Source: Hirudinaria manillensis (taxonomy: Eukaryota > Annelida > Clitellata > Hirudinida > Hirudinidae). Taken from it: a DNA stretch of 64,000 nt. Under the pieces are notes generated by a model. It saw only the letters and a program-made list of their open reading frames with translations, was not told the DNA's origin and made no database searches. Location of the stretch: NCBI GenBank assembly GCA_034509925.1, contig CM067529.1, forward strand, positions 2,931,001 to 2,995,000. Direction: 5' to 3'. The position numbers and the translations under genes are program-made. Shown here piece by piece: positions 51,801 to 53,199 of this stretch; within the stretch, counting starts at the first letter, position 1; every line of letters begins with the position of its first letter.

Positions 51801-53199
51801 GTTCGTGGCGCACACCTCGGGGCACCAGCAGTGTATGGCCTCGCCCAGGCACTGACGGGCACTGACTATGGTCGCCAGGATGATTATCAGGACTGCACTG
51901 AATAACCTGCTGATGCGGTCGCTCGAGTCGTCGTCGTGGTTCAATTTGATGTTCCTCAAGTCGAAGAAGATGCGAAACACTTCCTCCATCTTGTCGCTTT
52001 GTTTGTATTGCTAAATGTGTTGCTGAGTATTGACAAGTATTTCCTTGTATTGCCTATTAAAACCTATTAATTGCAGTTTTATGAAAACATCAAACTGTAT
52101 CTTTAGAAAAACGTAATGCAACTGGAATATCGTGATTGTAGATCCAATATTGGCTGACTGCTAACGATATGTCGGAGGCATTTCAATCCAACACAACGTG
52201 GCAGATAATTAAAAATCCAAATAACTACGTGCAAACGGCAAAAAATAGGGTCAAAGCAGAATCATTAAAATAATTCTGTACAAAATCAGAAAAAGCAGAA
52301 TACATTCAATTAATTTAATAATTTGAAAATATTCTGCTCTCCACTAAATTGCTACTATATCGACTCGAACAACGAACGAATGTCTCCGACGACTGCACAA
52401 CAACAATTGCAACACAAAAGCAATCCTCACAGCGTTCACGTGAGTCAGTTTTTTATTTTTATTTTTTATTTCAAACGAGCGTCCGTCGAGCTGAAACATC
52501 GTAACTTGTGATGAACACCTTCGCTGATTTAAACTAGGGTATGTGTTCGATCATCATTATCGCCATAATCATTATTATTAATAATAATAATAATAATAAT
52601 ATTTCGTTATTAATATTATTATTATTATAAATGTCGGTTTCGGGTGTCAATTTATGGACAAAATGTTCGATTTGTGGTGGGAATTAAATACTTTTCACGA
52701 AAGAATTTGCTATTTAAGCAATGCAGTTAATTAATTTTAATTAATTACTTAAAAATGAATTAATATGTTTATTGCCGTTTATTTATTTAAAAACATTTAT
52801 TTGTTTATTCATTATATTTATTGCTACGAACACTTAAATCATCTTTATGTTATCATAAATTTTCTGTCGTAAATTTCGTAAATTGAACAAAATAATGCAA
52901 AAAAAAGCAGATGAAAGGAATCCATTTCTCGTCGGAAGTGGTTTTTTTTTTTAAATTTCATTTTATTTCAACAAACAATTTTATTTATTTATAAATAAAA
53001 AATAAATAAATGAAAAGAAATATTTATTTAAATGCATTTGTCATTTCAAGATGAACTTTATTTGTTTTCAGCGCCATCTGCCATTGTCACCTTCATCATC
53101 ATCATCATCATCATCATCATCATCATCGTCGTCGCCTTGCTATTGAAATCCGTTCCCACCGTCAACTTAAAGTCAAGGTGGAATCATAGTTATAGTTAG
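15781..53199 (+). CDS. Immunoglobulin-superfamily type I membrane protein, three Ig-like domains (eight exons, whole gene span)
   Basis: Exons 15781-15877, 38835-38968, 39954-40080, 42429-42524, 46040-46426, 46992-47176, 49057-49186 and 53072-53199 join in one frame (phases 1, 0, 1, 1, 1, 0, 1) to give about 427 residues. Order: signal peptide; Ig1 (exons 2-4, with LPCEF, IIWNK and DVGNYSCEV); Ig2 (exon 5 alone, cysteines in SCTC and ITCSV); Ig3 (exons 6-7, FLRCLV and YWDF, ending [11 protein letters not shown]); one TM helix; a short basic tail. Phase-1 introns flanking Ig units are the animal rule. N-glycosylation sequons (NES, NFS, NYS, NST, NKT) are present. The fold and topology suggest a cell-adhesion or recognition receptor; I cannot assign a named ortholog. 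Ig3 lacks its second cysteine. The last exon is less certain than the others. The innexin gene lies inside intron 7 on the other strand. Confidence 0.8.
21914..21952. repeat. (TTTG)n microsatellite
   Basis: About ten perfect TTTG units within intron 1 of the Ig gene. Confidence 0.95.
24012..24172 (+). mobile_element. Probable degenerate tRNA-derived SINE
   Basis: An A-box-like TATCTGAGTGGCTTC is followed about 30 bp later by a B-box-like GTGTTCGAAACC (24055-24066). Two copies of a SINE tail motif follow: GGCGCCATATAAATGCGCC at 24090-24108 and AAGCGCTGCATAAATCGAACC at 24134-24154, then CCATT units. This arrangement of tRNA head and GCGCT-ATAAAT tail is typical of V-type SINEs of marine and freshwater animals. 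It is old or truncated, and no target-site duplication was identified. Confidence 0.45.
28633..28736. repeat. (ATGG)26 microsatellite
   Basis: 104 bp of perfect ATGG units. Confidence 0.97.
29530..29674. repeat. (ATT)n microsatellite, interrupted
   Basis: About 48 ATT units with a few GTT and ACT interruptions. Confidence 0.95.
29992..30124. repeat. (AAT)n microsatellite
   Basis: About 44 AAT units interrupted by short ACAAAATAAT steps. A shorter AAT array follows at about 30390-30470. Confidence 0.95.
32176..32284. repeat. (ATT)n microsatellite
   Basis: ATT units with a few AAT phase changes. Confidence 0.95.
36045..36116. repeat. (AGTG)18 microsatellite
   Basis: 72 bp of perfect AGTG units. 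Confidence 0.97.
36425..36520. promoter_or_regulatory. Cluster of GTGAC/GTCAC and TGACC half-sites
   Basis: TGACCTTGA at 36439-36447 is the reverse complement of TCAAGGTCA, the extended half-site bound by ERR/NR5A-type nuclear receptors. Nearby are GGTGAC and GTCACC copies and a perfect 7 bp inverted repeat (CTGTGAC at 36499-36505, GTCACAG at 36510-36516). Regulatory function is only inferred. Confidence 0.25.
38835..38968 (+). CDS. Ig-superfamily gene exon 2: first half of Ig1
   Basis: The exon follows a TTTCCAG acceptor. It gives the B-strand cysteine in VRLPCEFV and the core tryptophan in PIIWNKRQ. The donor is GTGGTC, in phase 0. Confidence 0.85.
39954..40080 (+). CDS. Ig-superfamily gene exon 3: middle of Ig1
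   Basis: The exon runs from [12 protein letters not shown] to RFRMTLRIT, the C'-to-E strand part of the domain. Phase 0 in, phase 1 out. Confidence 0.83.
40081..42428 (+). other. Intron 3 of the Ig gene
   Basis: AT-rich, holding the AAT array at 40.5 kb, a poly-CCATC stretch at 40.18-40.2 kb and a GTC run at 40.8 kb. No coding signal seen. Confidence 0.6.
40515..40670. repeat. (AAT)n microsatellite
   Basis: About 50 AAT units with single interruptions, in intron 3 of the Ig gene. Confidence 0.97.
42429..42524 (+). CDS. Ig-superfamily gene exon 4: end of Ig1
   Basis: The classic F-strand signature DVGNYSCEV lies here, with FSPED before it and the G strand after. It closes Ig1 with a phase-1 GTGAAT donor. 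Confidence 0.88.
42525..46039 (+). other. Intron 4 of the Ig gene
   Basis: AT-rich, with AAT arrays at 42.54 and 44.1 kb, a GT-rich stretch at 43.27-43.34 kb, a GTT-rich stretch at 45.06-45.13 kb and a probable SINE head at 45.65 kb. No exon seen. Confidence 0.6.
45650..45725 (+). mobile_element. tRNA-like SINE head or tRNA pseudogene
   Basis: GTTGTCCGAGTTTCC resembles a class II tRNA A-box (GTGGCCGAGTGGTT), and GGTTCGAAACC (about 45700-45710) is a perfect B-box. The T-arm and acceptor stems do not pair properly, so it is not a working tRNA. The middle CGCTGCGCTGTTGGTCC looks like that of many tRNA-derived SINEs. Confidence 0.45.
46040..46426 (+). CDS. Ig-superfamily gene exon 5: Ig2
   Basis: A single 387 bp exon after TTTCCAG, phase 1 at both ends. 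The cysteines in LSCTC and PITCSV are about 70 residues apart. The expected core tryptophan is absent or replaced, so the domain is divergent. Confidence 0.85.
46489..46606. repeat. GAT/GAC array
   Basis: Mixed GAT and GAC triplets immediately downstream of Ig exon 5, ending in TTGTTGCTGATGAT. Confidence 0.9.
46992..47176 (+). CDS. Ig-superfamily gene exon 6: first half of Ig3
   Basis: The exon follows CATTTTCAG. It encodes [26 protein letters not shown], then LYWDF with the core tryptophan. The phase-0 GTAAAT donor lies 100 bp before the giant CATT array, so the array is intronic even though the reading frame stays open through it. Confidence 0.85.
47277..48229. repeat. Giant perfect (CATT)238 microsatellite in Ig-gene intron 6
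   Basis: 953 bp of uninterrupted CATT units, about 238 copies. Because the 12-base period of four codons contains no stop, it yields a long false frame of repeated Ser-Phe-Ile-His. It starts 100 bp after the exon 6 donor. Confidence 0.98.
48361..48414. repeat. (ATT)n microsatellite
   Basis: About 18 ATT units within intron 6 of the Ig gene. Confidence 0.95.
48924..49022. repeat. Compound (AAT)n-(AAG)n microsatellite
   Basis: AAT units pass into about nine AAG units roughly 35 bp before Ig exon 7. Confidence 0.93.
49057..49186 (+). CDS. Ig-superfamily gene exon 7: second half of Ig3
   Basis: The exon encodes [16 protein letters not shown] and [11 protein letters not shown], aligning with the E-F-G strands of an Ig C2/I domain. 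Where Y-x-C is expected it reads Y-R-V. The acceptor may be at 49056 or, in the same phase, at 49080. The GTGGAT donor is in phase 1. Confidence 0.75.
49187..50416. other. Ig-gene intron 7, part downstream of the innexin stop
   Basis: The segment includes the innexin 3' UTR on the minus strand. A GC-richer block at 49440-49850 is open in several frames on both strands. The minus frame 49521-49721 ends [10 protein letters not shown] and could be an alternative C-terminal exon, but its only acceptor lacks a pyrimidine tract. A C-rich stretch lies at 49958-50012. Confidence 0.4.
50219..50224 (-). terminator. Candidate polyadenylation signal of the innexin gene
   Basis: AATAAA on the minus strand, about 195 bp after the innexin stop. 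Another lies at 49869-49874. Confidence 0.35.
50417..51989 (-). CDS. Innexin gap-junction protein, complete, two coding exons
   Basis: Exon 51499-51989 and exon 50417-51170 join in phase 2 to give 414 residues, normal for an innexin. The four-helix plan is visible. TM1 is followed by the first extracellular loop with [21 protein letters not shown] and TYFVP; the family hallmark [16 protein letters not shown] opens TM2. [20 protein letters not shown] is TM3. The second loop has LCDFRIR and [18 protein letters not shown], leading into TM4. The cytoplasmic end carries [18 protein letters not shown], then a Lys/Arg-rich tail. The donor is GTTTCT and the acceptor TCTTCCAG. Innexins assemble as hexamers or octamers into invertebrate gap junctions or hemichannels. 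The first loop has two cysteines more than the usual pair. The gene sits inside the last intron of the Ig gene, antisense to it. Confidence 0.95.
51990..53071. other. Upstream of innexin / end of Ig-gene intron 7
   Basis: About 1 kb of AT-rich sequence that should hold the innexin promoter and 5' UTR. An ATT cluster lies at 52.57-52.63 kb. No exon seen. Confidence 0.5.
53072..53199 (+). CDS. Ig-superfamily gene exon 8: transmembrane helix and short tail
   Basis: The exon follows a strong TTTGTTTTCAG acceptor and accepts phase 1. A 22-residue helix runs AIVTF, eleven isoleucines (eleven ATC codons), VVALLL, then the lysine of KSVPTVNLK. Without further splicing the frame stops at 53197-53199, leaving a 17-residue tail. 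A possible GTGGAA donor at 53178 would lead to further cytoplasmic exons I cannot see. Any ATC array reads as poly-Ile in one frame, so the call rests on the acceptor, phase and flanking residues. Confidence 0.6.

What the first reader, a model, noticed from the sequence alone, without database searches (positions are those of the whole stretch)
53072..53199. A transmembrane helix written by an (ATC)n microsatellite
The only plausible TM exon of the Ig-superfamily gene consists of eleven consecutive ATC codons framed by AIVTF and VVALLL, with matching splice phase and a strong acceptor. If real, the length of a TM helix is set by a slippage-prone triplet array, and indels of single repeats would lengthen or shorten the membrane span without a frameshift. 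The same ATC/GAT repeat fills the gene's introns, so the helix may have been born from, or been overwritten by, such a repeat.
Basis: partly seen in the sequence, partly recalled or inferred. Interest (0 to 1): 0.8.

Follow-up and report, generated by a model that had tools for sequence, protein, structure and literature searches.

The report
Possible leech membrane helix from repeat
In a leech gene for an antibody-like surface protein, a run of eleven ATC triplets could spell the stretch that anchors the protein in the membrane, but repeats in this genome often mimic such stretches and a rival end of the gene exists, so it is plausible, not shown.

Summary
The sequence is as described: eleven ATC codons (53095-53127) in a phase-1 exon (53072-53199, TAG) that extends an Ig gene as ...[14 protein letters not shown]11[23 protein letters not shown]. 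The hydrophobic run is 22 residues, with basic residues behind it and a good acceptor. The genome is very probably Hirudinaria manillensis (scaffold sizes). The last Ig exon ends in phase 1 in all 5 paralogues whose end was read, of 7 where it was found.

'The only plausible TM exon' does not hold. A closer in-phase exon, 49466-49746, has exon-like GC, positive codon preference and a hydrophobic, GPI-signal-like end, though a weaker acceptor. ATC/ATT arrays make TM-like decoys with acceptors throughout the window. A strict scan expects about 0.08 such exons in the 3.9-kb intron: moderate support, not proof.

A triplet repeat inside a TM exon is known from human MICA. Best guess: a real terminal exon whose helix core is an expanded ATC array (0.43). 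Transcripts and repeat polymorphism were not testable, and the genome server did not answer, so paralogue terminal exons could not be compared.

The parts
38835..38968 (+). Ig gene, first V-set exon found ([12 protein letters not shown]...NKRQ); a signal-peptide exon was not identified
   Evidence: read; V-set match of the joined protein, Pfam E 5e-9
39963..40080 (+). Ig gene, V-set exon 2 (EEVQVNIMG...RMTLRIT)
   Evidence: read
42429..42524 (+). Ig gene, V-set exon 3 ([14 protein letters not shown]...VSIK), ends phase 1
   Evidence: read
46040..46426 (+). Ig gene, second Ig domain exon, phase 1 to phase 1
   Evidence: paralogous exons in the same genome
46992..47176 (+). Ig gene, third Ig domain, first half ([15 protein letters not shown]...)
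49057..49186 (+). Ig gene, third Ig domain, second half (DRNDGW...[16 protein letters not shown]), ends phase 1, donor GT at 49187
   Evidence: same end phase in the 5 paralogues read
49466..49746 (+). rival terminal exon, phase 1, hydrophobic (GPI-signal-like) C-terminus ...[27 protein letters not shown]
   Evidence: GC 55.5%; +7.6 bits codon preference over 91 codons; no Pfam match; weaker acceptor
53052..53071 (+). splice acceptor TGAACTTTATTTGTTTTCAG
53072..53199 (+). proposed terminal exon: APSAIVTF-I11[23 protein letters not shown], stop TAG 53197-53199
53095..53127 (+). (ATC)11, uninterrupted, read as 11 isoleucines
50417..52010 (-). innexin gene (two open frames, 52010-51477 and 51274-50417) nested on the opposite strand in the intron 49187-53071
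   Evidence: Pfam Innexin E 2.4e-34 and 3.5e-51; outer limits are those of the open frames
53497..53992 (-). last coding exon (VKRRARE..., TGA 53499-53497) of a convergent opposite-strand gene with a SUEL lectin domain; its stop lies about 300 bases from the TAG at 53199
   Evidence: Pfam SUEL_Lectin E 6.5e-8 for 59098-59472; the exon chain is read by eye

Best explanation
53072-53199 is the terminal coding exon of a leech Ig-domain cell-surface protein. It supplies a single transmembrane helix of 22 residues, of which 11 are isoleucines read from an uninterrupted (ATC)11 array, followed by a 17-residue basic cytoplasmic tail. Hydrophobic codons outside the array (GCC ATT GTC ACC TTC before; GCC TTG CTA TTG after GTC GTC) favour a repeat that expanded inside an existing hydrophobic segment, tolerated because every inserted ATC adds one membrane-compatible isoleucine without a frameshift. 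Shown: sequence, open frame, phase, acceptor, hydrophobic length. Inferred: that the exon is spliced in, that it spans the membrane, that repeat number varies, and the order of events.
For: Phase 1 matches the donor, and the last Ig exon ends in phase 1 in the 5 paralogues read (found in 7 of 17 held paralogue loci). The acceptor scores above all 11 hand-set acceptors, though only mid-range (7 of 19 as high) when 8 automatic ones are added. 22-residue hydrophobic run with K, then K..R behind it. Strict decoy expectation about 0.08 in the 3.9-kb intron. Codon preference of 28 of the 30 non-repeat codons is slightly positive (+1.7 bits; the other gene's TM exon +4.3 over 24). Convergent layout, stops about 300 bases apart.
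Against: TM-like decoys behind acceptors are common. Codon preference in the other model is 0.04 bits per codon, against 0.32 +/- 0.24 for 73 held-out coding windows and -0.40 +/- 0.59 for open non-coding windows; 20% of the latter score as high. A closer in-phase exon exists at 49466-49746. By a composition-dependent score 53072 is 28th of 93 in-phase candidates. No polyadenylation signal, variants included, before 54044, 845 bases behind the stop. The intron would have to span an innexin gene. Isoleucine homopolymers are scarce in all proteomes of one survey, a leech among them (PMC5125637, passages). The five paralogue flanks seen (0.7-1.4 kb) show no convincing TM exon of this kind, and the flanks of the exon match only the window itself.
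Confidence: 0.43

Rival explanations
1. The gene ends at 49466-49746, only 279 bases behind the last Ig exon. Its product is held by a C-terminal hydrophobic signal (GPI anchor, as in three-Ig IgLON proteins, or a TM helix), and 53072-53199 is intergenic repeat DNA.
For: In phase; GC 55.5% against 19% for the intron before it. +7.6 bits over 91 codons; best of six frames in the five 30-codon windows starting 49425-49605. Top of 93 in-phase candidates by the composition-dependent score, 31.8 bits. Polyadenylation variant AGTAAA 187 bases behind the stop. No need to span the nested innexin gene.
Against: Weaker acceptor: -0.14 against 2.92 for 53072 with 11 acceptors, 15% of AGs as high. In the window from 49650, which holds the hydrophobic end, the frame is not the best. 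The second candidate lies antisense over the innexin, so that score follows GC. Several GC islands are not known exons; another frame of this island is open for 121 codons. A lysine inside the hydrophobic stretch. No Pfam match. GPI likeness is from recall; no predictor was run.
Confidence: 0.28
2. 53072-53199 is a chance decoy: an ordinary ATC array beside an acceptor-like sequence. The true end of the gene lies elsewhere, or the protein is secreted.
For: Decoys are common. The opposite-strand gene shows the same trap: repeat-made TM-like frames behind acceptor-like AGs at 57524, 55083 and 54661 (minus) beside its non-repeat TM exon 56614-56533. (ATC)11 is everywhere in the genome.
Against: The strict decoy expectation in the intron is only about 0.08; phase, acceptor, helix length and basic tail fit together.
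Confidence: 0.21
3. Intron retention: without splicing at 49187 the protein ends ...[32 protein letters not shown], a short hydrophobic end made by an ATT-like repeat.
For: Open frame to TGA; the stretch [19 protein letters not shown] has mean hydropathy 2.55.
Against: A donor in the same phase in the paralogues read; hydrophobic stretch short and at the very end.
Confidence: 0.08

Closest known systems
Human MICA exon 5 (GCT)n transmembrane microsatellite
   Same: Membrane protein related to the Ig superfamily with a triplet array in the exon of the TM region; repeat number changes it by whole residues, 4 to 10 alanines (PMC8044845 section 6, passages; TM region also named in the abstracts listed).
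   Different: Alanine, not isoleucine; polymorphic in people, whereas neither transcript nor polymorphism is known for the leech exon. A one-base insertion (allele A5.1) truncates MICA and makes it GPI-anchored; nothing of the kind is known here.
TM-first birth of membrane proteins from thymine-rich DNA (Vakirlis 2020, PMC7005711, passages)
   Same: Non-genic sequence that yields hydrophobic helices by composition alone.
   Different: Whole small ORFs in yeast, not a terminal exon of an Ig gene; thymine richness, not a triplet array.
IgLON family (NEGR1, neurotrimin); three Ig domains and GPI anchor recalled
   Same: NEGR1 is the best PDB sequence match, E 3.7e-4, over residues 215-293 of 349; three Ig regions by exon structure.
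   Different: Only one stretch matches; the first domain is V-set-like; anchor type unknown here.

Membership tests
Immunoglobulin superfamily | Ig domains recognised by profile | tested here: met
   Ig_3 40.2 bits (cut-off 30) and V-set 36.8 bits (cut-off 26)
Immunoglobulin superfamily | phase-1 introns at domain borders (recalled as typical) | tested here: met
   borders at 46040, 46992 and 49186 are phase 1; 5 paralogue ends
MICA-type TM microsatellite | uninterrupted triplet array in frame inside the TM codons | tested here: met
   (ATC)11 inside a 22-residue hydrophobic run of the proposed exon; conditional on the exon being used
MICA-type TM microsatellite | exon present in the mRNA | not testable with these tools
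   no transcript data
MICA-type TM microsatellite | repeat number varies between individuals | not testable with these tools
   one assembly only; 30 sequenced individuals are reported in PMC12109416 (passages)
IgLON | three Ig domains | tested here: inconclusive
   three regions by exon structure and paralogue matches; Pfam Ig_3 finds two stretches
IgLON | GPI anchor | not tested
   possible only if the rival exon 49466-49746 is used; no GPI predictor was run

The most novel reading that the evidence does not exclude
The leech gene makes two surface forms by alternative terminal exons, one with a hydrophobic GPI-type end (49466-49746) and one with a poly-isoleucine helix (53072-53199). The helix length differs between individuals and alleles by whole ATC units, a slippage-tuned membrane anchor in a multigene Ig family.
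Probability: 0.08. Interest if true: 0.65.

Novelty: new variant of a known kind. Interest (0 to 1): 0.35.

Why it matters
If used, the exon would be a second case, far from mammals, of a triplet array inside a transmembrane helix, with the repeat making half of the helix. It would give a natural series of helix lengths to test how membrane span affects sorting and shedding. If not used, it is a clear example of how ATC/ATT-rich genomes can fool gene-structure reading with repeat-made TM exons.

Tried and rejected
Searched the own genome for the non-repeat flanks of the exon: 1 match, the window itself. Looked for terminal exons in the 0.7-1.4 kb behind the last Ig exon of five paralogues: no convincing TM exon of this kind. 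L023 has an ATC-made hydrophobic frame with a poor codon score (-7.1). L016's best ORFs have no TM. L013 has an in-phase exon candidate 74 bases behind the donor, ending ...SLIGALKMFTVFGVAVLGNDRMNNYA*, a hit that is not among the six best codon scores. A tail resemblance between L013 (RMNNYA) and the window (RWNHSYS) was rejected: that motif pattern occurs 21 times in the window. Weak PDB matches of the rival exon to antibody light chains (best E 0.1; 29 sequences at E up to 5) were judged not significant. Frame 49488-49850 was rejected as coding (-22.3 bits; no PDB match at E up to 5; no Pfam match). Rfam (gathering scores) and tRNA searches of the window found nothing. Pfam gave no family above its cut-off for the other opposite-strand exons tried (the CUB-like and sushi-like ones).

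Errors of my own, mended: the codon model had wrong training frames and was replaced. In one search the true frame is the best of six in 9 of 12 training exons and positive in 9 of 12, so the score has limited power. The PWM (15 and 17 decoy rows, target -0.46) rested on six misplaced acceptors and is replaced. The odds were raised for this mend from 0.40 to 0.43 for the exon, and lowered from 0.30 to 0.28 and from 0.22 to 0.21 for two rivals. Exon limits 38835, 39963, 40080, 42524, 56614-56533 and 53992 are corrected from earlier notes. and the notes end the proposed exon at 53190/53191; one search shows the stop at 53197-53199. In one search the automatic donor for L023 was misplaced; its end was read by eye. 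In one search the rows of L015 and L018 cross a stop and were dropped. One search used the window and 16 of 29 loci; the others overlap these or the window.
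Full report
What was checked. Eleven uninterrupted ATC codons occupy 53095-53127. Spliced in phase 1 behind 49057-49186 (donor GT at 49187), 53072-53199 reads APSAIVTF-I11[23 protein letters not shown] and stops at TAG 53197-53199. The hydrophobic run is 22 residues. In a leave-one-out PWM of the 11 acceptors that I set by hand in this window, the acceptor at 53072 scores 2.92, above all 11 (-10.38 to 1.55), and 3.1% of 5,541 AGs score as high. With 8 automatically picked paralogue acceptors added, it scores 1.38, 7 of 19 score as high, and so do 8.5% of AGs.

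The gene. Six plus-strand exons between 38.8 and 49.2 kb give a V-set domain, a second Ig region and a third Ig domain. Pfam finds Ig_3 at 40.2 bits and V-set at 36.8 bits. The best PDB sequence match is NEGR1, E 3.7e-4. The same genome holds relatives: 31 matches at E up to 10 (only the best 30 candidates are scored), 3 of them the window's own exons, and 19 others below E 0.05 that I group into 16 loci on 9 contigs. The last Ig exon was found in 7 of the 17 paralogue loci held, L012-L028, two pairs of which overlap. I read its end in 5 (L013, L016, L017, L023, L026), and all 5 end in phase 1 at a GT, as in the window.

The organism. G000 has 148.43 Mb in 23 contigs, with C1 14,755,599, C6 11,463,318 and C13 8,303,845 bases. 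The published Hirudinaria manillensis assembly has 148.59 Mb in 22 scaffolds, the 13 longest 14.76 to 8.30 Mb, N50 11.46 Mb, plus a mitochondrial genome (PMC10671345, passages). The totals differ slightly. The name is inference, and very likely.

Surroundings. The proposed last intron (49187-53071) holds an innexin gene on the opposite strand, both halves of the Pfam profile (E 2.4e-34 and 3.5e-51). A second opposite-strand gene runs towards the Ig gene: a SUEL lectin domain at 59098-59472 (Pfam 6.5e-8), further exons without a Pfam match above cut-off, a TM exon at 56614-56533 reading MTLVAICFIAILFALCILVAGLIIFK, and a last exon beginning VKRRARE and ending with TGA 53499-53497. Chain and phases are read by eye. 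Its stop and the Ig gene's TAG at 53199 are about 300 bases apart, tail to tail.

Is it more than chance? ATC reads as isoleucine in one frame, and ATT arrays give I or L in several, so such arrays mimic TM helices. In the window, acceptor-like AGs followed in phase 1 by a TM-like stretch number 14 (+) and 12 (-); 10 and 7 of these are at most 80 aa with the stretch near the start. With a PWM cut at the target's own score there are 5 (+) and 3 (-) rows with 11 acceptors, or 10 and 12 with 19. These include the target, the opposite gene's TM exon and two rows for one stretch; other rows are 3 and 2 distinct stretches with 11 acceptors. The opposite gene carries such decoys in its introns (57524, 55083, 54661). 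Under strict rules (hydrophobic run of 17-32 residues starting within the first 16, K or R within 4 residues behind it, stop within 90 aa, pyrimidine tract) 16 hits occur in 230,498 strand-bases in three phases, 15 besides the target; in phase 1 alone 2 besides the target. That is 0.022 per kb and phase, about 0.08 expected in the 3.9-kb intron and 0.32 to the window end. The rules were chosen after seeing the target, so this is moderate support.

Rival ends. In phase and much closer lies 49466-49746, ending ...[48 protein letters not shown]. Its GC is 55.5%, against 19% in the intron before it, 43-53% in the exons 46040-49186 and 43% in the proposed exon. Under a composition-matched codon model it scores +7.6 bits over 91 codons while the competing plus frame scores -22.3. 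It is the best of six frames in five windows starting 49425-49605, but not in the window from 49650 that holds the hydrophobic end. Its acceptor is weaker (-0.14; 15% of AGs as high). It looks like a GPI signal to me, from recall; no predictor was run. Read-through past 49187 gives a short hydrophobic end as well. The proposed exon scores +11.5 bits with its repeat and +1.7 for 28 of its 30 non-repeat codons. In the other model it lies between coding and non-coding (0.04 bits per codon; coding 0.32 +/- 0.24, n = 73 windows; open non-coding -0.40 +/- 0.59, of which 20% score as high). No polyadenylation signal, variants included, lies before 54044.

How it would work. If spliced in, the exon provides the membrane anchor. 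The array makes up half of the helix, and each gained or lost ATC changes the span by one isoleucine (about 1.5 Angstrom of helix, recalled) with no frameshift. The hydrophobic codons outside the array make expansion inside an existing TM segment more likely than birth from the repeat, but edges of such arrays often hold GTC and similar codons here, so birth is not excluded. Isoleucine homopolymers are scarce in the proteomes of one survey that includes the leech Helobdella (PMC5125637, passages), which lowers the prior.

Known relatives of the idea. Human MICA exon 5 carries 4 to 10 GCT codons, and allele A5.1, with one extra base, makes a truncated, GPI-anchored form (PMC8044845 section 6, passages); abstracts in the listing name this the transmembrane region. 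The principle is therefore known; a poly-isoleucine version in an invertebrate Ig gene would be a new variant. The listings of my searches for isoleucine or leucine repeats with TM terms and for leech microsatellites name no such case; they cover only the open-access library held here, and the papers listed were not read in full. Thymine-rich non-genic DNA as a source of TM domains is described for yeast (PMC7005711, passages).

What could not be done. The genome server did not answer, so the terminal exons of the 16 paralogous loci could not be read beyond 1.5-kb flanks. No transcripts, individuals or related species were available. I put 0.43 on the exon as read, 0.28 on the closer hydrophobic exon, 0.21 on a decoy and 0.08 on read-through.

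Noticed in passing
50417-52010 (-): An innexin gene sits on the opposite strand inside the proposed last intron of the Ig gene.
   Followed up: partly
53497-59472 (-): Opposite-strand gene with a SUEL lectin domain, a non-repeat TM exon (56614-56533) and a glutamine-rich tail; its introns hold several ATC-made TM-like decoys.
   Followed up: partly
49466-49746 (+): GC-rich island with an in-phase ORF ending in a hydrophobic stretch; weak PDB matches to antibody light chains (best E 0.1), probably chance.
   Followed up: partly
47258-48229: A 972-base ATTC array (243 copies, 99% matches) inside the intron that splits the third Ig domain.
   Followed up: no
528-1061 (-): Trefoil (P-type) domain, Pfam E 4.4e-8; what follows resembles the start of a glycosidase-type protein (recalled, not tested).
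   Followed up: no
7142-7285: (CAA)48 perfect array, open as poly-Asn on the plus strand and poly-Val on the minus strand.
   Followed up: no
G000, 16 loci outside the window: A leech family of Ig proteins on 9 contigs, with the same phase-1 end of the last Ig exon in the five read.
   Followed up: partly
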